Virus record (IMG/VR): IMGVR_UViG_3300025133_000274
Coordinates: 1 to 39,392 of that record
DNA from: a virus
Reading direction: 5' to 3' (one strand)
Length of the DNA: 39,392 nucleotides
The first letter of the stretch is position 1, and each line of letters begins with the position of its first letter. Positions 1 through 21,218 of this stretch are shown piece by piece. A program made the position numbers and the translations under genes. The notes beneath the pieces were generated by a model that ran no database searches, was not told the origin of the DNA, and saw only the letters and a program-made list of their open reading frames with translations.

Positions 1-435
1 ATGCTAAAGTCTATGGGAGGTTCTGGAACTACGAATCCCGATACAGGATTGCAGGAGTACTTTTGGCCACTTTTAGCTAAAGCGGCCCCTATTGTACTCG
101 GAGCTCTTAGTGGCGGAGAAGGTGGTGGACTACTTGGTGGGTTACTTGGGGGTGGAGATAAAAAAGAAGAAGATGGTGGAGGTGGTGGAATAGGTGGTAT
201 GCTTAGTGGACTATTAGGTGGACTTATGGAAGACGGTGGAGAAGTTGGTGGCCAAGAACCAGAATCGTTAGCTACTTTACTTGCTAAAAGAAGACAAATG
301 CCTCAAGGGTTCAATCAACCAATAGGACAACAGAACGACATACAAATGATATTGAGGAATATGCAACAAAATCCTAATCCTCAAGTACAAGAATACTTCT
401 TAGGAGGTATGATTCAAAAACTACTAGGACAATAA
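1..435 (+). CDS. Glycine-rich putative virion/internal protein (possibly 5'-truncated)
   Basis: The 144-residue reading frame begins at the first base of the window, so the true start may lie upstream and the gene may be partial. The middle (about residues 25-85) alternates hydrophobic leucine/alanine stretches with glycine runs and short Asp/Glu/Lys patches, giving a glycine-zipper-like, potentially membrane-active segment. The C-terminal 60 residues are Gln/Asn-rich. It stops with TAA two bases before the next gene, so it is co-transcribed with the virion genes that follow. I do not recognise a family. Its composition and position suggest a small structural or ejected protein, such as a membrane-interacting internal protein, but this is inference from context. 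Confidence 0.6.
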   Translation: MLKSMGGSGTTNPDTGLQEYFWPLLAKAAPIVLGALSGGEGGGLLGGLLGGGDKKEEDGGGGGIGGMLSGLLGGLMEDGGEVGGQEPESLATLLAKRRQMPQGFNQPIGQQNDIQMILRNMQQNPNPQVQEYFLGGMIQKLLGQ

Positions 436-3038: not shown

Positions 3039-3049
3039 ATTTAACTTAT

Positions 3050-3057
3050 TATCTTTG
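3050..3057 (+). promoter_or_regulatory. Candidate Bacteroidota-type -7 promoter element (TATCTTTG)
   Basis: The 24-base gap before the giant polymerase gene contains TATCTTTG, a match to the TAnnTTTG -7 element of Bacteroidota housekeeping promoters. A TTG lies at 3025-3027, about 22 bases upstream, slightly farther than the usual -33 spacing. If used, transcription would start almost at the ATG at 3063, giving a leaderless or very short-leader mRNA. The genome is AT-rich and the element is short, so a chance match is possible. Confidence 0.35.
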
Positions 3058-3062
3058 TACGT

Positions 3063-6000
3063 ATGAGCGCTAAACAACACAGGCCTATTGAAGAGTATGT
3101 AGAGCAGTTTGAAAATAAGGAAGTAGAGCAAAGCGAAAGCTTACGCTCTGAACTTCAGAATAAGCCTTTACAAAATAAGCAAGGCACAGCAACAACTCCA
3201 ATCCCTCCAAATACTGAGCTTCCTTTTGAGAATCCCATAAATCCTTATGGACCAGAAGACCCACGTTCTTTCGAAGAGCAGGATGCTTATACAGCCGATA
3301 AAGCGGGGTATCTTCAGCAACGCTATAAATCAGAGTTACTTAAGTATATAAATAAAGGAGGAGAAGATAGAAAGCTTTTAAACAGTGATCCTCGTTTTAA
3401 CCCTGAGGATGCACTGGTTGTAAGTACTAAAGAAGAGATCTTAGAAAAGAGTGGAATACGTAATGTATGGAATGCTCTTCAGCAGAATATAGATGCTATT
3501 CAGATAAGTGCTACTAAAGGAGAGATCCTTGAGGCTACTAATAGAAAGAACATAATCGAAGAAGATATTAAAAATTCAGGAGGAGTACCAACTGAAGATC
3601 AGCTCGATGCTTTACAAGAGATCGATGATGATATTGCTGATTATGAGCAAGATATAAAAGAAAACGAAATAGAACATAAGGCTGCATCTGACTATTTAGG
3701 AAAATATGGTCAACATAGGATTGATCAGGATGTAGCAAATCCAGGAGCTTGGCCTGACAGTTGGATGGAGCTTGCACACCATTTAGGTGGAACTATGTCT
3801 GAAATACAAGCAATGGGGGCGAGTATGGCTGCTCCTTATATTGCAGGAAAGGCTACAGCACTTGTAGGGGCTAAAGTAGGACTTGGTGCGACTATATGGT
3901 CAGGACCAGGAGCTGCAGGGGGAGTAACAGTTGGAGGTGTTATTGGATTCGCTGTAGGATTTGGCGGAGCACTTGCTGCACAGCTTTATTCTAGAAATAG
4001 AGAATCTTACGCAGAGATGCATGAAGCATTTGAATCTAAGATTGAGGGAGAGAAAAGAAAATACAGACTGCTTAATAATGGCAAGGAAATGCCAGAAGAA
4101 GAGTTAGCTGCTCTTGAAAAACAAACGATGTCTACTGTAGGGGCTGTGTATGACCTGAATCAAAATCTATTTGCTACAGATGTGATTGAAGCAGGTATAG
4201 GGTTCTTACCTTGGAGTAAGTTTAAGAACTTCTTACCTACAGGTAAATGGGGAAGAAGAGCTGCTTATGCAGGTGCAGGAGCTGGTGGTGTAGGTGTAGG
4301 AGCTTATTGGGAAGGAAGAGAAGAAGGAGACCAGTTCTTAATTAAGAATGGTTATCTAAGAGGAGACTATGATGATTTAGAAAGACTCGAATCTATTGTA
4401 AACAGTATGGGACTGGCTGCAGAAACTACTGGAGGGATGGTCAATAACTCTATTAATAGGATTTTAGACTATAGAGTTGCAGGAGGACGCACGGAATCCA
4501 AAGAGTTTAAAGCCTCTGTTGATGCAGGAGTAATGCTTGGTGGTGTCATGGGAGGTACCAGAACAGTAGGAGAATTAGGCATAAGAACTGCACAGAAGGT
4601 AGTAGATAATCAAATGTATGGTTCAGATGCAGAAGATTTTGTAGAGCAGGTATACGATAGGTATATGGATGCAGAGCATAATAAGGCAATGTCTGAATGG
4701 CTTTTCACTAAACTTCAAGAGAAAGGTGGAGCTAAAAAGCTTAATAAGTTACTCAATAAGATTGAGAAGAGTTTTCCTGATATTGCAGAGAAGATGGATA
4801 TGCCTAAAGCCAGAGAAATGGTTCTCGTTGCATCCGCAATTCATAGTAATGTAAATCAAGAGAAGTTCAAATCGTTAAGCGTAGAAGATAAAAGCACAGC
4901 ATTTAGGGCCCTTATCAGTAACTACTCTACAGGGGAAAGATTAGCAGAGGATATTTCCAATGCAGAGTCAGAAATTCAAAAAGTTATTGCAGGTCTTCCA
5001 GCTCCTACAACGGAGAAGGAACAGGGAATGTCTGAACTTATAGCTCTAAAGGCAGAATTGAATGTAGCCAGAGCAAAGCTTAAGCGTATTAAGGCTCTTC
5101 CTGGGACTACAGATATGCGTCTTGCTGCTATTAATAAGATACAGGAGGATTACTATACAAAAATATTAAAGGGAACAAAAGCTACAGAGCACAAAGAAGC
5201 TGTACCAGGACTTGAAAAGCAGTACAAAACTATGCTGGAACAGCATGGACATACAACGACCAAAAGTATTCCTCTAAATAAAGATCTACAGGATCTTAAT
5301 AATACCGCATTTGCAGCCAAAGCATCTAAACGGGAAAATGATGTAACCAGAGAGTTGATACAAAGTGCGTCAAATGGAGAAACGCTCATGGCAAATCCAT
5401 TTATACAGGATTTTGGTAAAACTTTAGAGAGACCAGAGGTAAAGGAAAAAGAACCTACTATTGCTAAGCAAAATCAAGAAGGTTTAGAAGAAAATGCTTT
5501 GGTAGAATATAAAGATTCCAATGGGCAAGCACAACATGGAAATCTTAGAATAACCACAGATCAAGAAGGGAATGCTACATATGGAGTATGGAATGGTGAA
5601 ATAGAGGTACCAGTAGAAAGAGATAATATTACACTTATAGTACCAATTGAGGAAGTTAAAGCTGAAAATGCTACTTCTCATGGAAAGCAACAGAATGCTA
5701 AAAATGAGAAGAAAGAGCAAGAAGCGGAAAAGGCTAAAAAGGCTAAGGAGGAGGAGGAGGAAGGGTCCGATGATGTAGATGATCTATTTTCTAAATTTGA
5801 CGAACCTGTAGTACCTGTAATACCTGTAGTAGATGATGCTCTATTCGAAAACGCAGAAGAAACTGCTGAGGAACATGCGCCAGAAGAAACAGGAGAAGTA
5901 AAAGCAGACGTGGGGCCTGAAGTAGTTGTAGAACCTGAAGTAGTTCCAACTGTAAACACTTCATTTGAAAATGCAGAAAAGGTAGAACACGATAACCAAG

Positions 6001-9000
6001 ATGGAAATTCAGGTCCTAAAACAGAAGAAAATACAACTGAAGAAGAAGCAGTTGAGCCCGAACCAAGTTTTACAGATGCTAAAAAGCCTATATCCTTAAT
6101 AGGATCTATAAGGAATGGAATACACATAACGGATCTCTTTCTTAAGTATATAAATTCTCTTCCCTCTATATTTTTTGAAAATAAAGAGGTTAGATACGAA
6201 ATAGATTTCGATTCAAAGTATTGGTACGCAAGCTCTATAATAAAAGATAAGTATAGAAATAAAATTACACCTCCTAAAGATGCTCCAGTCGGAGATCTTG
6301 CAAAGCTTCATATAAACGTATGGATAAAGGATCCGAAAACAGGAGTTGAATACAGTGTAAATTTGCAGAGCGGGCTCACAGGAGATCAGAGTAATAAAGA
6401 GGCTACTGCGCTCCTTAGACGTAAAATATACAAGCAGTATGTTGCAGGAGAACCTGCATTTGGTACTATATCCAAATATCAAGAAGTAAGGGCATTTTGG
6501 AACGAGCTTCGTAGTAGGGATGGAGTAAAGGAAAATATAGGGGAGCACTTCTCTATTAAATCTTTATTCCCAGATGGTCCAGTAGTATTAGGAGTTAAGA
6601 ATGACTTTGAAATTACTGGAGGAGGTACGACTGTAGGATTTGATACAGGTACAAAGGCTAATAATGGTGTAGTCTATGCGATGGTAGTTGATCCTGCTAC
6701 AGAAGAGCCGCAAAGTGTTAAGCTTAATCAAAGAGGGCTTAATGAGAATGAGGTTTTTGATCTATTGGATATACTTGAATTTTATAAAAAGGCAAGAAGT
6801 AAGTCTTCGAGGTACTGGCGAAATGAAATAGATACAGGGTTGTCAATTCTGCAATACCTTGAAATGCTTACATATTCTTTCGAGTCTAGAGAGTATGCAA
6901 AACAGCACTATACTCTTGGAGCAGGAAAAGGGTTTTCTCCGTTCATAAATACTGCTCTCGTGATAGAAGAAAATCAAGCATATTTTTATGACGGTGAGGC
7001 TGGAGACTTTGTACAACTTACGGAAAGTACCAAAGAGCAGTTCATAGCGTGGGCTTTAGCGAACAAAAAACGTCAGGTACATTCAACAGCATTAAATAAA
7101 TCGATATTTGATATATTCACTTCGGAAACAATGTCCCTTAAGAAACGGGGTTCTATTGTATTTCAAGGGGTTACATACCTTGAAGATGAGTATGATAAGT
7201 ATAATGAGCATTTTCTAACAGAAAACAATTCTGAGGATGTAGATATGCATGTTATGCGTACAGACACTAAATTAGACGATCAACTTAGACCAAAACACCT
7301 TGTACATTCAGCAAGTAAGTTTATATTTAATACTGAAGTGCATAATAAGAGTAGGGAAGAAAAGGAAGAAAAAAAGAAAGAAGATACTAAAACTGCAGCA
7401 AAAAAAGAAACCACAAACGAGGGTCATAACTTCCAGTTTGGCGATGACATGGAAAACCTTTCTATGGAAGTAGAGGTAGGGGACGACACTTCGGAAAAAG
7501 CTCCTAAAGAGAAATTCAACGAGATTAAAGCTCGGGCATACTTAAAGAGAGTACTTGGAGATACTGTTCCTGTTAATATTCAAAAGAGCCTGATAAGCTT
7601 AGGACGAAAAGGTGCATATGCATACGGTGTATTTAGAAAGGGTATGATTACTTTATCTGAACAGGCTGTACATGGCGCAGAGTACCACGAAGCCTATCAT
7701 GCTGTTGAAGAATTATGGCTTGCACCAGAGCAACGTAGAGGATTAGATATTCAGACCAGGCAGCAATTTGGTGTTCCTACCAAAGCCATGATCAAAGAGA
7801 TTCAATCTAAACATAAGGATATTACCGAAGAAGTAGCAGAGGCTATCTATTATTCTGAAATACGTGCTGAAGAGTATAGATATTGGGAAACTACAGGTGA
7901 AACTGCAGGAGTAGGAGAGAAGGTAATACGATGGTTTAAGTATATCAAGGCTTTAGTCGGATATATGATGAATCCTAAAACCCGTATGCACACAGACTTA
8001 CTGTTCTACCGTATGTCTGCAGGGTATTACGCTAATACTAAGCCTATATCGGCTAAAGTAGAAGCGTGGCGCAGTGGAAAAGGTTTACATGCTTTAGCAA
8101 TGGAGAGGCTTCCCTTAGACCCCCGTACAGTAGAGCAGACAGTTAATATTACTTTACACCACTATATAGATAACGCAGGAGGAATAGGAGGAGTTCATAA
8201 TATCAAGGATATAGAGAGTTTTGAAGCTAATGCGAAAGAGAGTAAGAAATTACATGCTTTCTTTAAAGCATATTTAGAATTTAAGGTCAAAAGGGCAGAA
8301 ACTATAGAAAATGAAAAGCCCTTTTTGAATGCGAGAAAACTACTACTAAGAGAAGTAGATGTCCTTGTTGAACATGCAGAACTTAGATTACAACAATTAG
8401 GAATCAGAGAAAACGAAGAAACGAGAAAGGATAACGCTGATGTCTTGGCTGCATCTAAATCTCCGTTTGAGACCAGTGGTAAGCAAAATGCTACTACTAC
8501 TACCAGGGTATTCTTTAGCTTTTTACCGCTATTTGATAAGAACGGTGAACTAGTTACGAATGTAGACACGGGATTGCCTGTAATGGCTAATCCTGGGCAT
8601 ATGTGGAACACAGTTGAGGCTTTATTAGCTGATACTGTTACATATACCAATGAACAAGGTAAAACTATATCTTCTTACGATCAGATGATGGTCAAATTAG
8701 AGACTTTATCGGTTTCAGATAGAACATTTGAGAGTTTATATACTCGTGTAAAAGCGTTACCTATAAATGAAAGGACACAGTTCTTTAATGCTATGAGTAA
8801 ATCAAATAGCAATTTCTTAACTGTTCTGTATCAGAATTTAGTTTACGAAGTAAAAGGACAGGTACAGAAGAGCTTACTATATAAGTTTATAGACCCTCAA
8901 CAGCAAGGTAAAGCATATCGTATTCGAGATAGATGGTTTGAGAATCATAAGGAGTTGCCCTTATATAGCAAAAAAGAGGATAAAGAGGGGAATCTTGTAA

Positions 9001-12000
9001 TTACAGCTAATAAAGACGTAGCCGCACGTAACAGTGCTATGTGGTTACAAGTTATGCTCGATTTACGTAATGAAGGTCTTACAGCGTCTACTTCTCATAC
9101 TACACGTATATTTTTAGAGCACTTAGGAATAGAAATGAGCGAAGAGGGATTAGAACAGGCATTTAACCTGATTTCTCCAGAATTTAAAACTGCTCGTAGG
9201 ATATTTATAGGTGGCATGTCAAAACTTATGGGAACAGGTTCTACATATTCTATGGGTACTTTGGCAGGAAAGGGAAAAAATAAAGGAAATGTAGCTGTAG
9301 ATTTCGTAGAAAATCATATGCTTAAAGAGAGTTTTGTAATGAAACTTGCTGCAGGAGAGGCAGTTGTAACAGAAGATTTTGGTCAAACTACTATCCTGGG
9401 TCCAGAAGGTAAAACTTACTGGATATACTCACTGAATAATTTCTTCAAGAAGCGTACATTACAAATGAACAGGTCTTCTTATTATGCAGATGAGTTATTA
9501 AAAAGTCCATATCATGGTCAATCGCAATTACTGAAGCAGTTGAAAAAAGGTAAAAAGTTAGTATATAAAACTTTCAATACCTACAAGAAACAGGGAGGAA
9601 ATGATCACGGAACAGACTATAAAGGTTTGAACCCCGCAGATGAATACACACTTCGAGTAAATATGACTTTAAAGCATACTTACAGCCCTGCAACTATGGC
9701 AGATAAAGGAGTTTGGATGCTATATAAAGGAGTAGAATATTTAACTCCTTCGGATATTAATATGATAGAGTATAATAAAAAAACAGATACTTATATTATA
9801 CCTCCTCATATACTTAAGATATTTAGTACCTATGCTGTTACCGAAATGGCAGCTATATATCAAGCTGATTTACAACTGTTCGGAAAACACGCACTTACCG
9901 ATTCGCAACTTATAGAAAATTATCACTATAAGGGAGAGGATAAGAAGACAGGAAAGCTTTTACGTGAAAATGCAAACGGCACTAAATTCGTAACATTTCC
10001 TTCTTTTAATGATGAGGAGTTTTTACAAAAGATCGGGTTTAAGGTTGGAAAGACCATAGTTCATCCTGTAATTAAGGATCTTCTTGAAAAGCCAGCATTC
10101 GTGTCTAAGATGACAGATATCATAAATGATAGAATCAGAGCAGAAGTAGGAACAGCATTAAGGTATTCTACAATACAAACTAATCCGAATGGCGGACTTA
10201 AGAATCATGCTATAGCTACAAAAACATTCAGTGCATTCAGTACCCTCGATGGGCAAACAGTAAACGAAGCAGGAGAAATAGTGCACTCTGCGGATGTAAG
10301 AACCAGACGCGCAATAGCTGCATTTGGTCTTAATAGCATTATTTCTAATTTAGAGGCAATGCAAGTATATGCAGGTAATCCTGCTTTCTATTTTAATATG
10401 GATGAGCTCTCTAAGAGAATGCCATCTCTTATTGCACCAGGTCAGGATCTAAATTTAGCTGTCGGAGAAGAGTTCTTCAAAATGGCAGTTTTACGGGATA
10501 TAGAAGAACCAAGTGCATATTTTGGAGAGTACTTAGCTAGCTATAAAGCCGCAAATAAAAAGCATGGATGGGGATTCTCAGAAGCAGATATTAAACGCAT
10601 TCTTAAACCTTATAGTAAGGTAAACCAAGCTGATGGGCAGGGCTATATATCACTTGAGCGTTGGGCATTCATTATGAAAAGGTTAGGCCGTTGGGACAAT
10701 AGTAAAATAGATGAGATCTATAAAAGATTACTTGCAGGAGCAGGAACAGCAAAGGATATGAAATTTATAGCTGCAATGCCTTTAAAAGGTATGCATTATG
10801 AATTACGTCCTTATAAAGGACTTATGGTTCCTACGTATATAAAGTATTCCCAAGCAGTATTATTTCCACAAGTTGTAAAGGGTACAGATAAGTTAGAAAC
10901 TCTGTATGCTACAATGACAGATAAAACTAATCCTATCGATGAGGTGATCTTCGAATCAGGTATTAAAGTCGGCGCCCAATCTCCTAAGCATTTTACAGGT
11001 GAAGGAAAACTGAAGCTTAATGTAATGACTCTTCGTAATGAGTATTGGAAGCTTCAGCAGGACTTGCGTCCTCACACAGCTTCTGAGTCTCTTGAGGGGT
11101 CTCAGGTTAAACGTAATCTACTTGCTAATATTAGGATAAATGCACAGTATACTTTAGATGGAAAAAAAGTTACGGGTCAAAATCTAATTAAACAGGCACA
11201 TGATATAGACAGAGAACTGTCGAATATGGGCAAGGATAAACTTTATGAAGAATTTGGTATAACTACTAATGATGAAGGTGATCCACAGATTACAGATTAC
11301 ACTAAATTACATGAGTTAATCTATAAAGAGTTCAGTAAGAAAGAATCAACTCCCAGAAAGCTGTTAGATTCATTGGAACTTAGAGCAGATAAGAGAGGAT
11401 TCTTACGCCCTCTTCACTCTCATCCATATGCAGATAAGATCGACCAATTAATTGGATCTATCATTACAGCACGTACTGTAAAGCTTAAAATGCCAGGTGG
11501 CTCGTATATTCAGTTGAGTAACTTCGGATTTAAGCGTACTAAACGCTGGTCAAGTCTTACTGATGCAGAAAAGGCAGAGATAGAAATGGTTACTAATCCT
11601 AACGATTTGAAACCTGGTATATCTGAAGTTAATAAGGGCGGCGAATTTGTTAAGTTCTCTCGGGCCCAAATTATGCTTCCTTCTTGGTTTAGAGATCTTA
11701 TTCCTAATTACGAAAAGATGTCGTCTGCAGAGATTCAGAAATATATCTCTGATAAGCGATTACTTAGAGGTATAGCATATAGAATACCAAATCAAGGTAT
11801 GAGCTCTATCGATGCATTTGAAGTTGTAGGGTTTTTACCGAAATCTATGGGAGATGCGGTAGTAGCATACGATGATATCACAGCTAAGACAGGTTCGGAT
11901 TTCGACATCGATAAGATGTTCATTATGCTTCCTAATTTTGGAGTGGATAAAAATTCAGGTAAACCTTATTATATAGAATATAAGGAATCTATGAAAGGTC

Positions 12001-15000
12001 CTATATTACCTCCAACAGAAAAGCAAATAGAAGCGATACAAGAAAAGAATAAAAAAGGAACGACTTCAAAAGAAAAGGCTACAGAGATATACTATTCGAA
12101 AAAAAGAGCAATTCGTAAGAAAGCACTTCAAAATAGAAAACTTGAGATATACGATGCTGTTATAAGTGATCCTAAAACATATATAGACCTAATTACTCCT
12201 TTGGATTCCATTGGAGTAAAATTCAGAGCTGCAAAAGTTAGATTCTTTGAGAATTATACTACAGTTTTTGATCACAAAATGCGTGCAAGGGGTGAAGCGC
12301 TTATTGCTGCAGATAAACTTGAAGATTTTATAAAGTTTGTGACAGACGCCATGTCTGTCAAAGGAGATCTTGAGTGGTTTTCAGCTTCGTTTCAAGTAGA
12401 TGTAAAGCAGCAATTTGTAGGAGGTAAAACAGGAGTAGCACTTACTGCACGTCAATTGGTTGACCATGCGATTTCTCAGTTCTCTCTTTCAGATAACGTG
12501 AGCGAAGAATCTCCATTGTATTTTTCAGAAAATTTAGGAATTGGTAATAAAACCAAATCAGGATTCTCTGATCTTTCTCAAATTTACAATACTGCAAAAG
12601 GTACGATCACTAATATCATTTCAGGTAGACTTAATGCATATGTGGATATAGCAAAAGATCCTTATATCTTTTATCTAAACAATAATGAGTTCACAGCAAA
12701 TACTGTATTTCTGTTAGATCGCCTCGGGGCGAACCCAGAATGGACTGATATGTTCATGTCTCAGCCTATACTTAAAGAATGGGTAGAATATGCTCAATAC
12801 ACACGTGCGGGTAATACTAAACGGATATGGGATGAAAAAACTAAAAAGACTTTAACAGATAAGGAAGCAGTACTTCGTGATTATAAGAAGAAGTATATAG
12901 AGACAATGGAGGGAGAGGGTATGTCGTATATAAACGCAGAGAAAGCATTTAAAGATGAAATAAAGAATATAAATTCTAAATTTGGAAGTAACACATTAAA
13001 ACTTGATAACCTTTTAAATATATCTACATTAGAAGAAGGGATCAAGAATAAAGAAGCTACTGATATTGAGCATATTATACATCAACTTACTGTAGTGGAA
13101 ACATTTTTTCACTTACGCCAACGGGCATCAGTACTTAGTTCTGCAATTGGAGCATCTAAACAAGATGTGGAGGGTGCAGGTGGAGGAATGGTAAACTCAT
13201 TGGTCTCTGAACGTAAACTTAGTGATGCATTACAAGATACAGGATTACGGGGTATAGCAGCTAGATTTGAAAACACAATGCTTGCTAAATATAGAGATAA
13301 CTCTACATCTTTAATGCTCTCGTTATTTAAAGACTCTTTTAATATTGGAAGTGCTGGATTTGGATCAGCATTATGGCAGATAGAAGAAATGTCCAATAAT
13401 GAGTATTTCAGTAAAAATCCAGAAAAGCTAAGAAGGGCCTATAGAGATTTATACAGTATGTATCTTGCTAAGAAGGCAAAAAGTCTTACACAAGAGAAAT
13501 TCCAGGAACTTGTAATAAGTGATAACAATATTGTGAATCAGCTTGCATTCTGGCAGACTTCTAGTAAGTCTCCTATAAAAGAAAACAGACTTATTAAATA
13601 TTTACTTGCATCTAAAGGTAATATCTCTAATATTAAGGATGAAATAGGAAGTATAACTGTTCCAAATACACAAGAAAAAGACGGAGTAAGTAAAGACCTT
13701 CTTACAGAAGCTTGGGAACAACTCTACTTACATGAAGATAAAAAAGTACAAGCATTTGCTAAAGATTTAGCTCTATATTCCTTTATTGTAAGTGGGTATA
13801 CAAATAAACTCTTTAGTTTTCATGAACTAATGCCCCTTTCATTAGAGGATGAATTATTTGACCGATTTAATGAAGAAGCAAACACAATTGAGGTATCAGA
13901 CGGCAAAGGAGGTAGTGCTGTAGTTTCAGATACTACTGACCCAGGGTTATTTTCAAGAGCAGAATTAGATATCTTCTTTAGAAATAATTCACATAATACA
14001 GATTTAGTACCTGAAATATCCGATAAATTTGCAGAAAAAGTTACTAGTGAGTTAGGACTTGAGGTCTACGGATTTGCTACAGGAGATACGTCTCTTGTTA
14101 AAACAGAATTGATAGATGGAAGAGAAGAGGTTACTCGTGTTACCAAGTATGTAACAGTGAATGAAAGATTATACAGACATGCAGGATGGAATTCAAAGCA
14201 GCTCCCTGTATATGTTGTAGTAAACAAGTTAGGAAAAAACGATAGAGGTAAAACCTTATTTGAGCCTTTCTTAAGAGAGGGAAAAGGATCTAATATAAAT
14301 ACTAATAATATTATTCTTTTAGATAAAGCACTACAAAAAAATGTTATTGTAGGTACAACCTTTGCTACTAAAAAACTTAAAGAAGCGGGCATATTAGTAG
14401 AAGTGGAGTTATCTACATCTCCAAATGAGACTACAGATGTGAATACACTTTTTCATTTAGAAGAAAACTCATTTCTTAATGAAGTAGAACGAGCTGCAAC
14501 TCTTATGGAGAATGCTGCAGACTTACAATCGGTATTTGATGGTAAAGAATTAAAACCCAGCGATAAGGAATTTTTAGCTGAAAATGGATTCAGTCAAGAT
14601 GAAATTGATATAATTGAGCGTTGGCTGCAACGTAATGCTCTTATATACAAAGGCAAACCTTTTAATGTACTTATGGCATATAGATTCAGTTCGTTATTAG
14701 AAGGACATAAGGATATAGTTGCTAAAATGCAGACTTTAGGAGAGAAAGCAGATAAAAAATTAGATAATTATTTAGCAGACTTTTTAGAAGAATATGGAGT
14801 AATTGTTACAGAACGTTCTATGCAGGATATGGAAGAGCGGTATGGAGAAGGAGTTTTAGGTGTAGCACACACACTTCGTAAAGTTATAGATATAGCTAAA
14901 GAAGATAGAACTAAGATGGTAATGCCTGAAGAGTTCAGTCATATGCTTGTAGACCTTGTAGGCGTTAAGAGTGATCTGATTAAACCTCTTATGCAGAATA

Positions 15001-16241
15001 TAACGTCTTGGGGCAAATTTGGAGCCATTAAGCGTGCTTATGCAAAAAACAGGCTATATCAAAATATAGATGGTTCTCCTAATATGGAGAAAATAAAAAA
15101 AGAAGCTATTGGGCAGATAATAGGTGAGGCGATTATTTACGCTAATGAAAAACGAGTTCCAAAAGGTAAATTTCTTAAATTAGCTTATGAGGCGTATGAA
15201 GCTATACTTAAAATAGCAAAATCCATAGCAAGTATCCCAGTAGAAATTATGGCAGATGAGATTGCACAGCAAGTTCTTTCTGGGGATAAAAAATTCATGG
15301 AAACATATGGAAGGGCTAAGGATAAAAACTTTACACTTAAAACTTTTGAAGAAGGAGCCACTAAATTTCCAAAAGCATTTGAAGTGATGGAAACGGCAAT
15401 TAGTAAATTAAATGCCGTACTCGTAGGATCCCTTGCTCTAAGAAGTCAGGGAAATGTATATAGGGATAAAGCTGAAACCTTACATGATCTGGATTTCGTT
15501 ATTCCTGAAAGTAAGAGACATTTTGATACCATTCAAGAAGTTGTACAGTGGTTAGAGACCGATGTTAAAAAGGAAATTCCTAATTTTATACCTATATATG
15601 TATTTAGACCTGAAAAGGATGAAAAAATAGTTGTAAATGCAATTATTACTACTCATCCTCATCTTGTAGAAAAGTTTGTGAGCCTAAAAGGTAACTTTAA
15701 TAAACGCTTAGATAAATTTACTAAAGAGGAACAGTCGCAGATGTTATTAATTGATTTCTTTTTAAATACAGAACATGAAGTGGTAACAGAACAAGGACAT
15801 GCTTCTTGGGTATCTATATTTGAAGCAAAGTTTTCAGATGCACTATCGCGGGATAAAGATTACTATGACCATAGAAACTTTATACCTCATGATAATGAAA
15901 ACAGAGAGTTTTCACCTGCACAAGAAAGCGATTTTGTATTTTTGCACTTCACTGTTCCTCAGATCTTTGCAATTGGTAACAAATATTTAAACAAGGGTAC
16001 ATTAGGAAAAGGAAAAGATAAGAAGCTACAAAAAAAAGGTAAATACTTTTATGGATTTAAACACGACCATGCAAAAAGTGCTAATTATATAGGACATATA
16101 AACAATACAGTATTTAATAAGAGCCCTGTGTTAAAACTCGTTAGAACAGAAAGAGGAATGAGGGCCCAAATTAGACCTGAAAAATATATAAGTAAGGACG
16201 ACCTTAATGACGATCCGCATACTAAAGATAACTGTAAATGA
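3063..16241 (+). CDS. Giant multidomain virion RNA polymerase polyprotein (crAss-like, DFDID)
   Basis: A single 4,392-residue frame. Visible parts, in order: a soluble helical N-terminus; a glycine-zipper hydrophobic region (~250-311); disordered Glu/Lys/Pro/Val linkers (~880-1010 and ~1427-1490); an HEAYH zinc-peptidase motif (H1542-H1546); an RNA polymerase core; an EEFSH segment (E3957-H3960); and a nucleotidyltransferase-like domain (~4100-4240; G4122-S4123, D4142/D4144). The polymerase call rests on DFDID at 2946-2950. This follows a stretch beginning RIPNQ at 2907 that parallels the beta-prime sequence R-x-P-T-x-H-R-x-S-I-Q-A-F leading to N-A-D-F-D-G-D. K2635 (SGIKVG) is a candidate catalytic lysine of the partner barrel. 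In crAss-like phages such polymerases are packaged and enter the cell to transcribe early genes, which fits the membrane-active N-terminus. The next gene overlaps it by ATGA. The fusion is much longer than the ~2,200-residue phi14:2 enzyme. RNA polymerase identity is firm; functions of the other domains are inferred. Confidence 0.92.
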   Translation: MSAKQHRPIEEYVEQFENKEVEQSESLRSELQNKPLQNKQGTATTPIPPNTELPFENPINPYGPEDPRSFEEQDAYTADKAGYLQQRYKSELLKYINKGGEDRKLLNSDPRFNPEDALVVSTKEEILEKSGIRNVWNALQQNIDAIQISATKGEILEATNRKNIIEEDIKNSGGVPTEDQLDALQEIDDDIADYEQDIKENEIEHKAASDYLGKYGQHRIDQDVANPGAWPDSWMELAHHLGGTMSEIQAMGASMAAPYIAGKATALVGAKVGLGATIWSGPGAAGGVTVGGVIGFAVGFGGALAAQLYSRNRESYAEMHEAFESKIEGEKRKYRLLNNGKEMPEEELAALEKQTMSTVGAVYDLNQNLFATDVIEAGIGFLPWSKFKNFLPTGKWGRRAAYAGAGAGGVGVGAYWEGREEGDQFLIKNGYLRGDYDDLERLESIVNSMGLAAETTGGMVNNSINRILDYRVAGGRTESKEFKASVDAGVMLGGVMGGTRTVGELGIRTAQKVVDNQMYGSDAEDFVEQVYDRYMDAEHNKAMSEWLFTKLQEKGGAKKLNKLLNKIEKSFPDIAEKMDMPKAREMVLVASAIHSNVNQEKFKSLSVEDKSTAFRALISNYSTGERLAEDISNAESEIQKVIAGLPAPTTEKEQGMSELIALKAELNVARAKLKRIKALPGTTDMRLAAINKIQEDYYTKILKGTKATEHKEAVPGLEKQYKTMLEQHGHTTTKSIPLNKDLQDLNNTAFAAKASKRENDVTRELIQSASNGETLMANPFIQDFGKTLERPEVKEKEPTIAKQNQEGLEENALVEYKDSNGQAQHGNLRITTDQEGNATYGVWNGEIEVPVERDNITLIVPIEEVKAENATSHGKQQNAKNEKKEQEAEKAKKAKEEEEEGSDDVDDLFSKFDEPVVPVIPVVDDALFENAEETAEEHAPEETGEVKADVGPEVVVEPEVVPTVNTSFENAEKVEHDNQDGNSGPKTEENTTEEEAVEPEPSFTDAKKPISLIGSIRNGIHITDLFLKYINSLPSIFFENKEVRYEIDFDSKYWYASSIIKDKYRNKITPPKDAPVGDLAKLHINVWIKDPKTGVEYSVNLQSGLTGDQSNKEATALLRRKIYKQYVAGEPAFGTISKYQEVRAFWNELRSRDGVKENIGEHFSIKSLFPDGPVVLGVKNDFEITGGGTTVGFDTGTKANNGVVYAMVVDPATEEPQSVKLNQRGLNENEVFDLLDILEFYKKARSKSSRYWRNEIDTGLSILQYLEMLTYSFESREYAKQHYTLGAGKGFSPFINTALVIEENQAYFYDGEAGDFVQLTESTKEQFIAWALANKKRQVHSTALNKSIFDIFTSETMSLKKRGSIVFQGVTYLEDEYDKYNEHFLTENNSEDVDMHVMRTDTKLDDQLRPKHLVHSASKFIFNTEVHNKSREEKEEKKKEDTKTAAKKETTNEGHNFQFGDDMENLSMEVEVGDDTSEKAPKEKFNEIKARAYLKRVLGDTVPVNIQKSLISLGRKGAYAYGVFRKGMITLSEQAVHGAEYHEAYHAVEELWLAPEQRRGLDIQTRQQFGVPTKAMIKEIQSKHKDITEEVAEAIYYSEIRAEEYRYWETTGETAGVGEKVIRWFKYIKALVGYMMNPKTRMHTDLLFYRMSAGYYANTKPISAKVEAWRSGKGLHALAMERLPLDPRTVEQTVNITLHHYIDNAGGIGGVHNIKDIESFEANAKESKKLHAFFKAYLEFKVKRAETIENEKPFLNARKLLLREVDVLVEHAELRLQQLGIRENEETRKDNADVLAASKSPFETSGKQNATTTTRVFFSFLPLFDKNGELVTNVDTGLPVMANPGHMWNTVEALLADTVTYTNEQGKTISSYDQMMVKLETLSVSDRTFESLYTRVKALPINERTQFFNAMSKSNSNFLTVLYQNLVYEVKGQVQKSLLYKFIDPQQQGKAYRIRDRWFENHKELPLYSKKEDKEGNLVITANKDVAARNSAMWLQVMLDLRNEGLTASTSHTTRIFLEHLGIEMSEEGLEQAFNLISPEFKTARRIFIGGMSKLMGTGSTYSMGTLAGKGKNKGNVAVDFVENHMLKESFVMKLAAGEAVVTEDFGQTTILGPEGKTYWIYSLNNFFKKRTLQMNRSSYYADELLKSPYHGQSQLLKQLKKGKKLVYKTFNTYKKQGGNDHGTDYKGLNPADEYTLRVNMTLKHTYSPATMADKGVWMLYKGVEYLTPSDINMIEYNKKTDTYIIPPHILKIFSTYAVTEMAAIYQADLQLFGKHALTDSQLIENYHYKGEDKKTGKLLRENANGTKFVTFPSFNDEEFLQKIGFKVGKTIVHPVIKDLLEKPAFVSKMTDIINDRIRAEVGTALRYSTIQTNPNGGLKNHAIATKTFSAFSTLDGQTVNEAGEIVHSADVRTRRAIAAFGLNSIISNLEAMQVYAGNPAFYFNMDELSKRMPSLIAPGQDLNLAVGEEFFKMAVLRDIEEPSAYFGEYLASYKAANKKHGWGFSEADIKRILKPYSKVNQADGQGYISLERWAFIMKRLGRWDNSKIDEIYKRLLAGAGTAKDMKFIAAMPLKGMHYELRPYKGLMVPTYIKYSQAVLFPQVVKGTDKLETLYATMTDKTNPIDEVIFESGIKVGAQSPKHFTGEGKLKLNVMTLRNEYWKLQQDLRPHTASESLEGSQVKRNLLANIRINAQYTLDGKKVTGQNLIKQAHDIDRELSNMGKDKLYEEFGITTNDEGDPQITDYTKLHELIYKEFSKKESTPRKLLDSLELRADKRGFLRPLHSHPYADKIDQLIGSIITARTVKLKMPGGSYIQLSNFGFKRTKRWSSLTDAEKAEIEMVTNPNDLKPGISEVNKGGEFVKFSRAQIMLPSWFRDLIPNYEKMSSAEIQKYISDKRLLRGIAYRIPNQGMSSIDAFEVVGFLPKSMGDAVVAYDDITAKTGSDFDIDKMFIMLPNFGVDKNSGKPYYIEYKESMKGPILPPTEKQIEAIQEKNKKGTTSKEKATEIYYSKKRAIRKKALQNRKLEIYDAVISDPKTYIDLITPLDSIGVKFRAAKVRFFENYTTVFDHKMRARGEALIAADKLEDFIKFVTDAMSVKGDLEWFSASFQVDVKQQFVGGKTGVALTARQLVDHAISQFSLSDNVSEESPLYFSENLGIGNKTKSGFSDLSQIYNTAKGTITNIISGRLNAYVDIAKDPYIFYLNNNEFTANTVFLLDRLGANPEWTDMFMSQPILKEWVEYAQYTRAGNTKRIWDEKTKKTLTDKEAVLRDYKKKYIETMEGEGMSYINAEKAFKDEIKNINSKFGSNTLKLDNLLNISTLEEGIKNKEATDIEHIIHQLTVVETFFHLRQRASVLSSAIGASKQDVEGAGGGMVNSLVSERKLSDALQDTGLRGIAARFENTMLAKYRDNSTSLMLSLFKDSFNIGSAGFGSALWQIEEMSNNEYFSKNPEKLRRAYRDLYSMYLAKKAKSLTQEKFQELVISDNNIVNQLAFWQTSSKSPIKENRLIKYLLASKGNISNIKDEIGSITVPNTQEKDGVSKDLLTEAWEQLYLHEDKKVQAFAKDLALYSFIVSGYTNKLFSFHELMPLSLEDELFDRFNEEANTIEVSDGKGGSAVVSDTTDPGLFSRAELDIFFRNNSHNTDLVPEISDKFAEKVTSELGLEVYGFATGDTSLVKTELIDGREEVTRVTKYVTVNERLYRHAGWNSKQLPVYVVVNKLGKNDRGKTLFEPFLREGKGSNINTNNIILLDKALQKNVIVGTTFATKKLKEAGILVEVELSTSPNETTDVNTLFHLEENSFLNEVERAATLMENAADLQSVFDGKELKPSDKEFLAENGFSQDEIDIIERWLQRNALIYKGKPFNVLMAYRFSSLLEGHKDIVAKMQTLGEKADKKLDNYLADFLEEYGVIVTERSMQDMEERYGEGVLGVAHTLRKVIDIAKEDRTKMVMPEEFSHMLVDLVGVKSDLIKPLMQNITSWGKFGAIKRAYAKNRLYQNIDGSPNMEKIKKEAIGQIIGEAIIYANEKRVPKGKFLKLAYEAYEAILKIAKSIASIPVEIMADEIAQQVLSGDKKFMETYGRAKDKNFTLKTFEEGATKFPKAFEVMETAISKLNAVLVGSLALRSQGNVYRDKAETLHDLDFVIPESKRHFDTIQEVVQWLETDVKKEIPNFIPIYVFRPEKDEKIVVNAIITTHPHLVEKFVSLKGNFNKRLDKFTKEEQSQMLLIDFFLNTEHEVVTEQGHASWVSIFEAKFSDALSRDKDYYDHRNFIPHDNENREFSPAQESDFVFLHFTVPQIFAIGNKYLNKGTLGKGKDKKLQKKGKYFYGFKHDHAKSANYIGHINNTVFNKSPVLKLVRTERGMRAQIRPEKYISKDDLNDDPHTKDNCK
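7680..7706 (+). other. Zincin-like HEAYH motif within the giant polyprotein
   Basis: Residues 1542-1546 read H-E-A-Y-H, an exact HExxH zinc-protease motif in a helix-compatible context (EYHEAYHAVEELW). Acidic candidates for the third ligand lie about 55-60 residues downstream, around IRAEEYRYWE. The motif follows immediately after a charged disordered linker, where an independent protease domain would be expected. It could process the polyprotein or act on a host protein. Proteolytic activity is an inference from the motif. Confidence 0.6.
11781..11940 (+). other. RNA polymerase beta-prime-like double-psi barrel with DFDID loop
   Basis: The stretch runs from R2907 (RIPNQ) through SSIDAF to SDFDIDKMFIMLP. 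In cellular beta-prime subunits the same landmarks are a 'P-T-x-H-R-x-S-I-Q-A-F' strand followed about 30 residues later by N-A-D-F-D-G-D-Q-M. D2946, D2948 and D2950 would chelate the catalytic magnesium. DFDID in place of DFDGD is the form seen in crAss-like phage polymerases, YonO-type enzymes and eukaryotic RNA-dependent RNA polymerases. Confidence 0.9.
15400..15770 (+). other. Nucleotidyltransferase-like domain at the polyprotein C-terminus
   Basis: The segment reads NAVLVGSLAL, about 18 further residues, then LHDLDFVIP. This is the hGS...DxD layout of the DNA polymerase beta/MNT nucleotidyltransferase superfamily, with G4122-S4123 and D4142/D4144. A later strand with polar and acidic residues (around VVNAIITTHP) could supply the third acidic position, but I cannot place it with certainty. 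Substrate unknown. Confidence 0.55.
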
Positions 16242-19200
16242 GCACATGTAAAGTTTTTAAAGTAGACAAAGCAGGTAAAGAAATTCCCAGCAAGCTCTAC
16301 GAAAAATTAGAGGAACAGTTTGGGGATCAACGATACGATAAGCCTGATGGAACCCAGGGGGAACTTATTAAAGACAGCCTCTGGGAATTAGCACGCAGTC
16401 AAGAGTTTACGAATACGTATGGTAATTGGAAAATCTTACCCGCTAATGAATACAGGCTTGTAAATAAATTAGATACACCTCAAGAATCTCCTAGATTGTA
16501 TAACCTTGGAGACGATGAGAACGGACAGATCATATATGGAGAGCCGTATATGGCAGATGTTTGGTCTTTTGCCAGTGGTAAAATACTTGCTACTAAACCT
16601 TGGAATACCAGTCAATTTAAAGCTACATCTTCTATAAAAGTTGCAATACTACGTAAAGCAGCAAGTGCTTTGGAAAAGAGAATAAAGACACTCTCTCGCC
16701 AAAAATCAAAGGAACTGCTTAGTGGGCAGCTAAAAGCTCAAAAAAAGGATTTAGAAAAGGAATTAGATTCAATAGGAGAGGCAGTACAAGATGAAAGGCT
16801 ATTGAACTATGCAGCAAATGCAATGGAACAAACTGCAGCTATTCTTGAAGAAATGGATATGCTAATTCTTAACATGGGTATAGCAGAAGATGAAGGAACT
16901 AAAAAACTTACTGCAGCCGCAGCTCAGGATATTTATTATTATATCACAGCATTTAGTGACATCGACTCAACTCTTGCACAAATTCAAGAGGGTAAATTAA
17001 TAGTACCCGATAAAGTAAGAATGCATCTACAAACTGCAAGTGATGTTCATAAGGAAATTGCTGCTAAGTATGAACGCTATGCTAAAGACTATGTAGTAAA
17101 TAAGTTTTCTACAGGTGGAGATATGATGAAAGCGTGGGCAGAAACCTCTTATGGTAAAGAGTTCGCACAGCTTAATAAGAAGTATAAAGGAGATGACGTT
17201 ATGCTCGAACAGATGGGCATAAAGGATAAAACAAAGGAGGAATATATACAAATGAGGCTAGATGAGGCCAAAACTACACTTGAAAAACGTGGAGCTGTTA
17301 TATTTCGTAATATGTTAGAAGCAACTAATCAGGACATTTCATTTGTCCAACGTTGGTTCTTAAATGCTCAAGATGTAAACGATGATGTTCTGAGGGCCCT
17401 ACAAATGGAAATCTCCAAAGTAGAGGATGAAATACGTCTCAAATGGATAGATGAAGTCCGTGCATTACATGGTACTTTTAAAGAGCTCCAGGAACATCAG
17501 ATGAAAAAGGATAAGAATATGACCCGTGAGGAGTTCTATTCGTTTATGCTTGAAAAAGATGAAATAGGCAAACCTACTGGATATTTCGTATCTAAATACC
17601 ATTCTAACTGGAGTAGAGACCGTAAAAAGAAGCAAGATGAGATCTATAGCCAAGAAGGAGTATCAGAGGCAGCTAAAACCAGACAGTGGATCAAGTGGAA
17701 AAAAGAAAATATAAAGTATAACTATACATTACCACTACGTTACATTATTCCTAAAGGCGCTAAAAAGGAAGAAAAAGACAAAATAATAAGAGAAGCAACA
17801 GCCAAAAGGGACGCTAAGGTAGAAGCCCTTAAAAAGGAGCACGAAGCGGCTTTAGCTGCATCCGTACCTAAACGTGATGCTGCTAATAATATTACACGAT
17901 CTGGAGATAGAGGTCCGTTATCACTCTTTGAGGATAAAATTGCAATGATTCATAGAGCAAGTCATACTCAATTTGAAATTCCTAAAAAGCCAGAGGATCA
18001 CGCTAAATACTTAAATCCTGCATATAAAAAACTTGCAGCTTATAGTAAACTTGAAGGGGGAGATAATATATATTGGAAGTATTATATACGGTATATGAAT
18101 CAAAATACAATAAATGACGAAGGACTTCCTTCTAATTTTAGAACTATGTATAAAATGCCTTCAATTCGTAAATCTTTACCAGAAAGACTTGAAGATGTCC
18201 ATAAATGGATGGGCTTTTTTCCAAAATTAATAGGAAAGAACAGTTTATACTCTGAAATATTTCAAAAGTGGAAAGAGGAAAGGACTGTATATGTTAAAGG
18301 TGAAGTTTCGGAAAGGGGGGAGGAGAGTGAAGAGATGGATAACCTACGAAGTAAACGTAGGAAGAACATACAAGATTACGCTTCTATAAGCACAGACGAG
18401 GAAGGCAGAGAACGACAGTATGTACCTATTCACTATAGAGGGCAAATAGAAATTGAGGATTTAACTATGGATCTTCACGGTTCCCTTGTAAAGAATACAT
18501 GGGTTACATTGTCTTATCAGAAAATGACCCAACTTCTTCCTTATGCAGAGATGCTTGTATTTTTTCTACAGAAGAGGCTTAATTTTACACAAAAAGCAGG
18601 ATTTAAAACAGTAGGTAGAGGATCTATAGGTAGAAACATTGATGTTTCAGCTAAAAATTCTTACAATGCTGCTAAGGATTTAATAGAACACCGAATGTTT
18701 GGAGTTACTAAATTAGACCCAGGGTATGAAATTGGAGGTCTTAGTGTTACTAAGTTATTAGGACTTGTACAATCGTATATGTCTACTACAATGCTATCAT
18801 TTAATGTCCATTCTTCTATTGCTAATGCTAATTTAGCAAACATATTATTTACAATTGAAGGAGCAGCAGGAGAGCATTTTGGTAAAAAAGATGTAGCTGC
18901 TGCATATGAAGCTTATGCTAGAGATATGCCAAGAATGATAGCAGACTTAACTGAGCCATTAGATCAGCATTCTAAAGTAAATGTAGTAGGGTTAATTTAC
19001 GATCCTACGAATAACTTTGATCACAGGCAATTTGATTATGCACATAATAGTAAAACAGCACATTTATTGCACGGATTTAGTTTACATTTTTTGAACGCCA
19101 GTGTTGAACACCATGTTCAATCCCTTACTATGATCGCATATCTTAAATCTACTAAAATCTTAGATGAAAATGATATGTATCTGGATGCTAAAAATGAACC

Positions 19201-20227: not shown

Positions 20228-20250
20228 TCTAACTTATATTAAGCGTGAGT

Positions 20251-20285
20251 AAAAAAAAGGGTAGAAGCTTATAGCTCCTACCCTT
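20251..20285 (-). terminator. Intrinsic terminator between convergent gene blocks
   Basis: The hairpin pairs AAGGGTAG (20257-20264) with CTACCCTT (20278-20285), plus an inner AGCT/AGCT stem, a TAT loop and one A-C mismatch. Read on the minus strand it is followed by eight U residues (the A-run at 20251-20258), so it should terminate the minus-strand operon ending at 20336. On the plus strand it has only a weak U-tract, but the stem may also slow readthrough from the late block. Confidence 0.85.
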
Positions 20286-20335
20286 ATAAACACATAGTAA
20301 AACCAATCACTGAAAAACTATGCGTACATGAGCTT

Positions 20336-20629: not shown

Positions 20630-20641
20630 ATTACAAATATA

Positions 20642-21199: not shown

Positions 21200-21202
21200 T
21201 AT

Positions 21203-21218
21203 TAATTTTGTATTTTTG
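21203..21218 (+). promoter_or_regulatory. Candidate promoter of the lysis-like cassette (two TAnnTTTG matches)
   Basis: TAATTTTG (21203-21210) is followed directly by TATTTTTG (21211-21218). Both match the Bacteroidota -7 element TAnnTTTG, just before the ATG at 21223. This is the only plausible place to start the isolated plus-strand cassette, since both flanks are minus-strand genes. The AT-richness makes the motif weak evidence by itself. Confidence 0.4.

What the first reader, a model, noticed from the sequence alone, without database searches (positions are those of the whole stretch)
3063..16241. A 4,392-residue polyprotein fusing an RNA polymerase, a zinc-protease motif and a nucleotidyltransferase-like domain
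The frame is open for 13.2 kb with no internal stop. The N-terminal third holds a hydrophobic glycine-zipper region; the middle holds HEAYH (1542-1546) and the DFDID polymerase core (2946-2950); the C-terminus holds a GS...DxD nucleotidyltransferase-like module (4122-4144). Known crAss-like polymerases such as phi14:2 gp66 are about half this length. Fusion of what elsewhere may be separate virion proteins suggests obligate co-packaging and ejection, and possibly self-processing after entry.
Basis: partly seen in the sequence, partly recalled or inferred. Interest (0 to 1): 0.75.

Follow-up and report, generated by a model that had tools for sequence, protein, structure and literature searches.

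The report
Giant phage RNA polymerase with zincins
This is a real 4,392-residue protein of a crAss-like phage that joins the RNA polymerase such phages are thought to inject into bacteria to a metalloprotease-like domain and, more unusually, to a toxin-like nucleotidyltransferase; the giant fusion is common in these phages, and the roving nucleotidyltransferase cassette is the newer part.

Summary
The 4,392-aa frame is open, is found in two other contigs of the same virus, and has a full-length relative. Residues 1800-3246 match the phi14:2 virion RNA polymerase (PDB 6vr4, E 5.5e-119) with the catalytic Asp conserved.

[quoted passage not shown] Split forms such as phi14:2 look derived.

HEAYH lies in a zincin-like domain on the seam where split relatives break; 29 of 32 split loci lack it. 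A second, paralogous zincin-like domain (EExxH, 3888-4086) follows the polymerase, then a nucleotidyltransferase whose model is nearest to MenT-type tRNA-modifying toxins (Z 10).

This cassette occurs in 19 contigs, never with HExxH, at four positions around the polymerase: its C-terminus (here), its N-terminus, a separate gene, or the start of the next gene. One short-pattern scan of 84,980 cellular species found no relative.

Self-processing is possible but not supported: 11 of 48 zincins have lost the second motif His while still fused. Best reading: an injected multi-enzyme ("polyvalent") cargo protein.

The parts
3063..16241 (+). giant cargo/polymerase ORF, 4,392 aa
   Evidence: intact in L002; relative of 4,720 aa in L004
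3750..4622 (+). N-terminal conserved region with glycine-rich hydrophobic segment (residues 230-520; hydrophobic peak 282-308)
   Evidence: profile hits in L004, L005, L020 and short standard-code ORFs of L015, L019, L021; hydropathy
6060..7262 (+). N-part homologous to phi14:2 g067 and to the upstream gene of split-type loci (residues 1000-1400)
   Evidence: L014 g067 1084-1260 E 5e-55; profile-profile E 1.8e-15 with upstream genes of split-type loci
7494..8039 (+). zincin-like metallopeptidase domain (residues 1478-1659), HEAYH 1542-1546, third-ligand candidate Glu1599
   Evidence: searches (H, E, H, E invariant in 8; first H, E and the later E invariant in 34), AlphaFold2 model, structure comparison
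8460..12800 (+). RNA polymerase, phi14:2 gp66-like (residues 1800-3246)
   Evidence: phmmer to 6vr4_A E 5.5e-119; conserved residues
11898..11912 (+). DFDID catalytic motif (2946-2950)
   Evidence: Asp 2946, 2948, 2950 conserved in 27 of 27 chosen relatives
12969..14252 (+). polymerase C-terminal region (residues 3303-3730), homologous to 1721-2093 of the L014 polymerase ORF
   Evidence: segments 3250-3560 and 3550-3760
14724..15320 (+). second zincin-like domain, degenerate (EEFSH 3956-3960; residues 3888-4086)
   Evidence: profile-profile with HExxH versions, probability 97%
15348..15923 (+). nucleotidyltransferase domain (residues 4096-4287): GS 4122, HDLD 4141-4144, D4231, K4256, RDKDYYD 4263-4269
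   Evidence: model; structure comparison (MenT1 Z 10.0); motif conservation
16238..20227 (+). next gene, 1,329 aa, relative of phi14:2 g065 / crAss001 gp49 (RNA polymerase-associated); no zincin-like domain detected in it here; its start overlaps the giant's stop
   Evidence: phmmer to L014 g065 E 2.8e-43, L016 gp49 E 3.4e-34; segment map
438..3038 (+). preceding gene, 866 aa, putative cargo protein with M15-like C-terminus
   Evidence: relatives in L005 and L004, weak match to the gene before the giant in cr1_1 (L018, E 0.0015); Pfam Peptidase_M15_3 E 0.015, under the cut-off

Best explanation
The ORF encodes the virion-packaged transcription cargo of a crAss-like phage as one chain. The N-terminal part (residues 1 to about 1450) corresponds to the cargo protein that is a separate gene (g067 / gp47) in split relatives, and it holds a glycine-rich hydrophobic segment that may meet the inner membrane. 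Next come a zincin-like domain (1478-1659), then the RNA polymerase (1800-3730), then a degenerate paralogous zincin-like domain (EExxH, 3888-4086) and a MenT/DUF1814-like nucleotidyltransferase (4096-4287). Most likely mechanism: a few copies are packed near the portal, threaded through the tail into the host ahead of or with the DNA, refold, and the polymerase transcribes the early genes. One chain fixes stoichiometry and co-delivery. The flanking enzyme domains are passengers of the 'polyvalent protein' type that act on the host (or on the chain itself) in the first minutes. Shown here: homology, motifs, conservation, predicted folds, gene order, evolutionary pattern. Inferred: packaging, ejection, enzyme activities and substrates.
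For: 6vr4 match E 5.5e-119 over about 1,450 residues; catalytic Asp conserved in 27 of 27 chosen relatives. The same virus (L002's 85.8-kb contig) has relatives of phi14:2 TerL, major head protein and portal, and the window has a replication gene block on the other strand. Homologous crAss001 proteins gp47, gp49 and gp50 are virion cargo by mass spectrometry (PMC10172136, passages); phi14:2 g065-g071 are annotated from MS/MS proteomics. Zincin: first His, Glu and the later Glu invariant in 34 sequences; model pLDDT 80 with helix, three strands, HExxH helix, Glu helix; 16 of the 20 best VIA-align rows are aligned over metallopeptidase regions of lethal factor, Pro-Pro endopeptidases or IrrE/PprI (Z 4.9-5.9). 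Second zincin-like domain homologous to HExxH versions. Nucleotidyltransferase: Z 10.0 to MenT1, 8.9 TM1012, 8.7 TglT/MenT3, 8.4 JHP933; HD[LI]D and RxKDxxD in at least one copy in 19 of 19 contigs.
Against: No proteomics, structure or activity for this phage. Zincin Z values are under 8, which the tool warns may be only a common arrangement, and 4 of the top 20 rows are other things (Certhrax 20-247, two lethal-factor chains over about 57-263, a mycobacterial regulator). Foldseek alone gave no significant hit for either model. Pfam and PDB profile searches gave no hit over a cut-off for either domain (best leads a Pro-Pro endopeptidase at E 0.01 and DUF5426 at E 0.005). The EExxH domain has lost a zinc ligand. 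The hydrophobic segment passes the threshold in only part of the relatives. The polymerase fold itself was not predicted.
Confidence: 0.75

Rival explanations
1. True polyprotein: the zincin at 1478-1659 cuts the chain (before packaging, in the head or after entry) to free the N-terminal part from the polymerase.
For: The zincin lies at the junction that is a gene boundary in split relatives. Zincin profile hit in 44 of 47 fused loci but in only 3 of 32 split ones; two of the three fused loci without a hit, L070 and L081, have an HExxH at a similar place. Iyer et al. propose autoprocessing by zincins in polyvalent proteins; P1 DdrB is processed (PMC5512222, passages).
Against: 11 of 48 zincins read HExxE, and 10 of those 11 also have EExxH in the second domain (the eleventh: second domain not found), so no canonical zincin was seen there although the giants stay fused. 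The fused/zincin association is not significant once relatedness is counted: 5 independent pairs, 1.2 the same way, 0 opposite, 3.8 without difference. N4 vRNAP with a metallopeptidase is packaged unprocessed (PMC5512222). crAss001 keeps the zincin at the end of the separate gp47.
Confidence: 0.25
2. The zincin and nucleotidyltransferase are host-directed effectors: the protease cuts host proteins and the nucleotidyltransferase modifies tRNA or a host protein to shut off translation or block defence at entry.
For: Polyvalent-protein theme (PMC5512222, passages). Nearest folds of the nucleotidyltransferase include tRNA-modifying toxins (PMC11541572 and PMC10435456, abstracts in the listing). 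The cassette sits at four different places around the polymerase, so it is not a fixed structural part of it.
Against: No substrate evidence. One of the two L005 copies has lost the HD[LI]D and RxKDxxD motifs. The Ser/Thr that MenT-type enzymes conserve before DxD (PMC11375011, passages) is not conserved here. In 14 of 19 contigs the cassette is not at the polymerase C-terminus (1 undecided), so fusion itself seems not to be required.
Confidence: 0.4
3. The extra domains are structural: degenerate enzymes used as folding, packing or portal-docking modules.
For: Both zincin-like domains have lost ligands in many lineages while kept in place; the cassette's own copy showed HExxH in 0 of 19 contigs (window). 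In N4 the region with the metallopeptidase is required for encapsidation (PMC5512222, passages).
Against: In the window HEAYH+Glu and the nucleotidyltransferase motif set are intact; 37 of 48 first zincins keep HExxH.
Confidence: 0.3
4. Assembly artefact: frame made by a chimeric join or lost stop.
For: None found.
Against: Ungapped agreement with two other contigs, L004 with the same architecture and many giant homologues.
Confidence: 0.01

Closest known systems
phi14:2 gp66 virion RNA polymerase (PDB 6vr4; Steigviridae)
   Same: Homologous polymerase, same catalytic DxDxD, same place in the cargo gene block
   Different: gp66 is about 2,180 aa and alone; g067 (1,797 aa) and g065 (1,421 aa) are separate genes; no zincin hit at the junction. 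g065 has an HExxH at 245, but my profile of the second domain did not match it
Giant fused RNAPs of Suoliviridae (cr53_1, cr4_1, cr1_1, cr114_1, cr118_1)
   Same: Single 4,272-4,946-aa ORF with zincin then RNAP in the same order
   Different: No nucleotidyltransferase cassette hit in these ORFs
crAss001 gp47 + gp50 + gp49 (virion cargo)
   Same: Same parts; zincin HEAFH near the end of gp47; EExxH domain in gp49
   Different: Three genes, gp47 on the other strand
P23-45 gp96 tape-measure-fused vRNAP (PMC10770324, passages)
   Same: Virion RNAP with a DFDGD motif, a metallopeptidase domain and membrane domains in one 5,002-aa chain; [quoted passage not shown]
   Different: Fused to the tape measure of a long tail, RNAP N-terminal; no nucleotidyltransferase mentioned in the passages seen
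Polyvalent proteins, N4-like virion RNAP (PMC5512222, passages)
   Same: Virion RNAP fused to zincin metallopeptidases in one giant injected chain; Pol-beta NTases also occur in polyvalent proteins
   Different: N4 RNAP is of the T7-like kind (recalled); the paper does not mention crAss (0 occurrences); its Pol-beta NTases are primarily from firmicute mobile elements
MenT / DUF1814 nucleotidyltransferase toxins
   Same: Predicted fold (Z 8.4-10), DxD, downstream Lys
   Different: No sequence-profile match; Ser/Thr before DxD not conserved; domain sits in a phage cargo protein, no antitoxin gene was looked for

Membership tests
crAss-like virion RNA polymerase (gp66 type) | sequence homology over the polymerase | tested here: met
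   6vr4_A E 5.5e-119, residues 1800-3246; tree
crAss-like virion RNA polymerase (gp66 type) | DxDxD catalytic triad | tested here: met
   27 of 27 chosen relatives; also invariant in the 13 rows
crAss-like virion RNA polymerase (gp66 type) | two double-psi barrels in one chain | tested here: inconclusive
   homology spans gp66 residues 237-1677, but the fold of this part was not predicted
crAss-like virion RNA polymerase (gp66 type) | packaged in the virion and injected | not testable with these tools
   known for crAss001 and phi14:2 proteins
Order Crassvirales | TerL, major head protein and portal of the crAss type | tested here: met
   in the 85.8-kb contig of the same virus: E 2.8e-37, 2.5e-25, 1.5e-97 to the phi14:2 proteins
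Zincin metallopeptidase (first domain) | HExxH plus downstream Glu | tested here: met
   H1542, E1543, H1546, E1599
Zincin metallopeptidase (first domain) | zincin fold | tested here: inconclusive
   model with the expected order of elements, pLDDT 80; 16 of 20 best VIA-align rows metallopeptidase regions or IrrE/PprI, but Z only 4.9-5.9; Foldseek not significant
Zincin metallopeptidase (second domain) | HExxH | tested here: not met
   EEFSH at 3956-3960; homologous to HExxH domains, so derived, not a canonical member
DUF1814/MenT nucleotidyltransferase | fold | tested here: met
   Z 10.0 to MenT1, 145 aligned, rmsd 3.3; Foldseek alone not significant
DUF1814/MenT nucleotidyltransferase | sequence-profile match | tested here: not met
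   no such Pfam family among 12 members at E up to 10; no PDB profile hit
DUF1814/MenT nucleotidyltransferase | DxD and catalytic lysine | tested here: met
   D4142, D4144, K4256; equivalence of the lysine is by motif order, not by superposition
DUF1814/MenT nucleotidyltransferase | Ser/Thr at the autophosphorylation site | tested here: not met
   L4140 two residues before the first Asp; not conserved in the family (site after PMC11375011)
Polyvalent protein | several unrelated enzyme domains in one chain of a phage or conjugative element | tested here: met
   RNAP by homology, zincin-like and NTase domains by model, in one ORF
Polyvalent protein | delivered into the host with the DNA | not testable with these tools
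   needs proteomics

The most novel reading that the evidence does not exclude
crAss-like phages carry a roving two-domain cassette, a zincin-like domain without HExxH plus a MenT-like nucleotidyltransferase, that hitch-hikes into the cell by being welded to, or placed beside, the virion RNA polymerase. It would be an injected tRNA- (or protein-) modifying enzyme acting before any phage gene is transcribed, to stop host translation or pre-empt defence.
Probability: 0.25. Interest if true: 0.75.

Novelty: new variant of a known kind. Interest (0 to 1): 0.5.

Why it matters
[quoted passage not shown] The comparison gives a testable anatomy: two paralogous zincin-like domains bracket the polymerase, the gene boundary of split forms falls at the first of them, and a nucleotidyltransferase cassette is found at four positions around it. 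If the cassette is active, these phages would deliver enzymes into the host at time zero; the report names catalytic residues to mutate.

Tried and rejected
Rejected: artefactual frame. Rejected: fusion as an oddity of this phage. Tried without result: PHROGs and Pfam on the giant and its plus-strand neighbours, nothing over a cut-off; near DNA search in phages; tblastn of residues 1-1779 in 50,697 phage records, no match at E 0.01; plasmids with the C-terminal module, no match; PDB profiles of the C-terminal module and of the nucleotidyltransferase, no match; Foldseek alone, nothing at E 0.001. The zincin profile's best PDB row was a Pro-Pro endopeptidase at E 0.01, taken only as a lead. A scan of 84,980 cellular species for the nucleotidyltransferase gave 171 pattern matches and no relative; the single pattern is short and strict, so distant relatives could be missed. 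A link between fused state and zincin did not survive the independent-pairs count. PF03237 was not found in the 85.8-kb contig, but phi14:2 TerL was.

The sample for motifs and architecture is 91 loci, after dropping L001, L003, L009, L013, L022, L023, L032 and L055 as repeats or pieces; near copies such as L095/L096 and L062/L065 were kept. 87 of the 91 entered the tree (4 had too little core); 79 of the 87 were classed fused or split and 8 truncated rows left unclassed. L040 and L074 are counted as split although their zincin is in the polymerase ORF; several loci classed as fused are open at the 5' end. The tree is a 'quick' one and unrooted. The catalytic-residue check used 27 loci that I chose, after the run on all timed out. 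The 19 cassette contigs include near copies (L060/L185's contig and L184; L188 and L190).
Full report
**Observation.** The ORF at 3063-16241 (+) is open for 4,392 codons with standard stops. The alternative frames hold 145-538 stops each, and codon-position GC is coherent from end to end. HExxH alone would be expected 0.15 times by composition and DFDID 0.002 times. Two IMG/VR contigs of the same virus align without gaps: L002 with 14 mismatches over 22.3 kb, and L003 with 5 over 17.9 kb (window 4934-22842). I take the frame as real.

**Whose genome.** The window is a 39,392-base virus record. L002's parent contig (85.8 kb) encodes relatives of phi14:2 TerL (E 2.8e-37), major head protein (2.5e-25) and portal (1.5e-97). 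Minus-strand genes at 21.9-36.5 kb of the window match ribonucleotide reductase, an AAA ATPase, exonuclease, primase, DnaB-type helicase, a second helicase and family A DNA polymerase. A cargo/polymerase block followed by oppositely directed replication genes is also seen in the annotated relatives (for example).

**The polymerase.** phmmer aligns residues 1800-3246 with 6vr4 (phi14:2 gp66 virion RNA polymerase) at E 5.5e-119. Profile segments extend the homology to about 3730. In 27 chosen relatives the three Asp of DFDID, and K2575, K2594, K2635 and R2907, are conserved in 27 of 27. I did not predict the polymerase fold, so the two barrels are inferred from homology.

**The fusion is ordinary.** In the annotated Suoliviridae records cr53_1, cr4_1, cr1_1, cr114_1 and cr118_1 the same polymerase lies in single ORFs of 4,645, 4,491, 4,551, 4,272 and 4,946 aa; these are 5 of the 8 annotated records I fetched with the polymerase region. 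phi14:2 has g067 (1,797), g066 (2,180) and g065 (1,421). crAss001 has gp47, gp50 and gp49. In cr131_1 the core is broken into two ORFs. Of 79 loci that could be classed, 47 are fused and 32 split, needing at least 5 changes on the polymerase tree. The window sits in a fully fused clade of four (support 100), beside a clade of 38 rows with 30 split that holds phi14:2. The root is not inferred, but the other large groups are mostly fused, so splitting is the simpler story. [quoted passage not shown] The transcription block is described as several large, multidomain proteins (PMC7886860, section 7 part 1). [quoted passage not shown] its own P23-45 gp96 joins a DFDGD polymerase, a metallopeptidase and membrane domains in 5,002 residues.

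**First zincin.** A domain at 1478-1659 recurs in most fused loci, starting about 1,045-1,350 residues before the polymerase core. Its first His, its Glu and a downstream Glu are invariant in 34 sequences. The AlphaFold2 model (pLDDT 80, pTM 0.69) shows helix, three strands, HExxH helix and Glu helix, the layout that PMC5512222 gives for zincin MPTases (passages). Of the 20 best VIA-align rows, 16 align lethal-factor residues within 442-777, Pro-Pro endopeptidases or IrrE/PprI (Z 4.9-5.9); the other four are Certhrax 20-247, two lethal-factor chains over about 57-263, and a mycobacterial regulator. Those Z values are modest, and Foldseek alone found nothing significant. Profile-profile comparison shows that upstream genes of split loci match the region just before this domain (E 1.8e-15), and that polymerase genes of split loci match from just after it (E 1.5e-11). 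So the domain lies on the seam. A profile hit was found in 44 of 47 fused loci and in 3 of 32 split ones (crAss001 gp47, L040, L074). Two of the three fused loci without a hit (L070, L081) have an HExxH at a similar place. Counting independent pairs, the association is not significant.

**Is it self-processing?** The seam position favours it. Against it, 11 of 48 zincins read HExxE, in giants that remain fused; in 10 of these 11 the second zincin-like domain is EExxH, and in one it was not found. The two motif states need at least 3 changes on the tree. In Iyer et al. [quoted passage not shown] I hold self-processing possible (0.25), not supported.

**Second zincin-like domain and nucleotidyltransferase.** Residues 3888-4086 carry EEFSH and a downstream KKEAIG stretch. 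The same domain occurs in the N-terminal part of the downstream g065/gp49-type gene of many crAss-like phages, as HExxH (for example L007, L010, L025, L096; in L012 and L092 inside the giant itself) or EExxH (crAss001 gp49 and others). phi14:2's own g065 has an HExxH at 245 that this profile did not match. Separate profiles of EExxH (24 sequences) and HExxH (19) versions align at 97% probability, and the first zincin (48) aligns with these at 87% and 91%. The EExxH and HExxH sets came from one iterated search, so this is support rather than proof. The polymerase is thus bracketed by two paralogous zincin-like domains, the rear one degenerate here. Residues 4096-4287 model as a nucleotidyltransferase: MenT1 Z 10.0 (145 residues, rmsd 3.3), TM1012 8.9, TglT/MenT3 8.7, JHP933 8.4, with eukaryotic uridylyltransferases, poly(A) polymerases and DNA polymerases lambda and mu at Z 7.6 and less. 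GS, HD[LI]D, DFF, Lys and RxKDxxD are nearly invariant in 12 copies; L005's second copy is the clear exception. No sequence profile links it to DUF1814, and the Ser/Thr that this family conserves before DxD (PMC11375011, passages) is absent. So it may work like, but is not shown to be, a DUF1814 member. Residues beyond about 4290 are low confidence.

**A roving cassette.** The zincin-like domain plus nucleotidyltransferase pair was found in 19 contigs, counting copies of the window virus once. It is at the polymerase C-terminus in 4 (window, L004, L188, L190; the last two open at the 5' end and nearly alike). It is within the polymerase ORF before the core in 1 (L183). It is a separate gene in 5 (L005 with two copies, L104, L105, L115, L142). 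It is at the start of the downstream gene in 8 (L060, L184, L106, L107, L108, L186, L187, L189). One (L192) is cut and undecided. The polymerase core is on the same stretch in 18 of 19 (not L192). The cassette's zincin-like domain shows EExxH in 13 of 19 and HExxH in 0 of 19; HD[LI]D and RxKDxxD are present in at least one copy in 19 of 19 (window). In the window virus, L004, L005, L105 and L192 no zincin-like domain was detected in the downstream gene. A scan of 84,980 cellular species found no relative, within the reach of one short pattern.

**In print?** Searches for 'crAss-like' with 'nucleotidyltransferase' or 'metallopeptidase' returned 8 papers each. I saw those listings, plus passages of three: PMC12386605 mentions a CCA tRNA nucleotidyltransferase gene of a zeta phage, PMC8525569 an orthologous group called putative metallopeptidase, PMC10770324 as above. 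None of the passages describes this cassette. The remaining listed papers were not opened for this, and Yutin 2018 and Drobysheva 2021 were not held, so absence from print is not established.

[quoted passage not shown] By homology this chain is cargo. The hydrophobic segment at 282-308, inside a conserved N-terminal region, may meet the membrane. The polymerase would make early transcripts. The domains on either side arrive with it and could act before transcription. Packaging, ejection, catalysis and targets are inference.

**Verdict.** A known kind of giant vRNAP, with a newer variant at its C-terminus: a roving zincin-like/MenT-like nucleotidyltransferase cassette. Interest 0.5.

Noticed in passing
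window 438-3038: The gene before the giant (866 aa) ends in a segment with an M15 peptidase-like pattern (SKHRVGSAIDF ... GGHVHIE; motif recalled); Pfam Peptidase_M15_3 E 0.015, under the cut-off. A murein peptidase at the end of a cargo protein would fit cell entry.
   Followed up: partly
window 1-435: A 144-aa glycine-rich protein (runs such as GGGEGGGLLGGLLGGG) at the start of the window; no confident relatives among the ORFs compared.
   Followed up: no
window 3874-4226: 10 of the 14 mismatches between the window and contig L002 fall in these 353 bases, over codons 271-388 around the hydrophobic segment; three are non-synonymous, in two codons (271, 293). A variable spot or a recombination patch.
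   Followed up: partly
L060 7076-15231; L163 1537-9457; L021 around 11883-12678: Polymerase cores broken into two ORFs, in L021 with a small ORF between; may be introns/inteins or truly split polymerases.
   Followed up: no
L183 6296-15400: Polymerase ORF in which the nucleotidyltransferase cassette occupies a place before the polymerase core, and no first-zincin hit was found in that ORF.
   Followed up: partly
L005 14356-17856: Stand-alone gene with two tandem copies of the cassette; the second copy's nucleotidyltransferase has lost HD[LI]D and RxKDxxD, and the first copy's zincin-like domain shows no EExxH.
   Followed up: partly
L012 1988-17980: A 5,329-aa ORF that holds both zincin-like domains (both HExxH), the polymerase and the downstream cargo protein in one chain.
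   Followed up: partly
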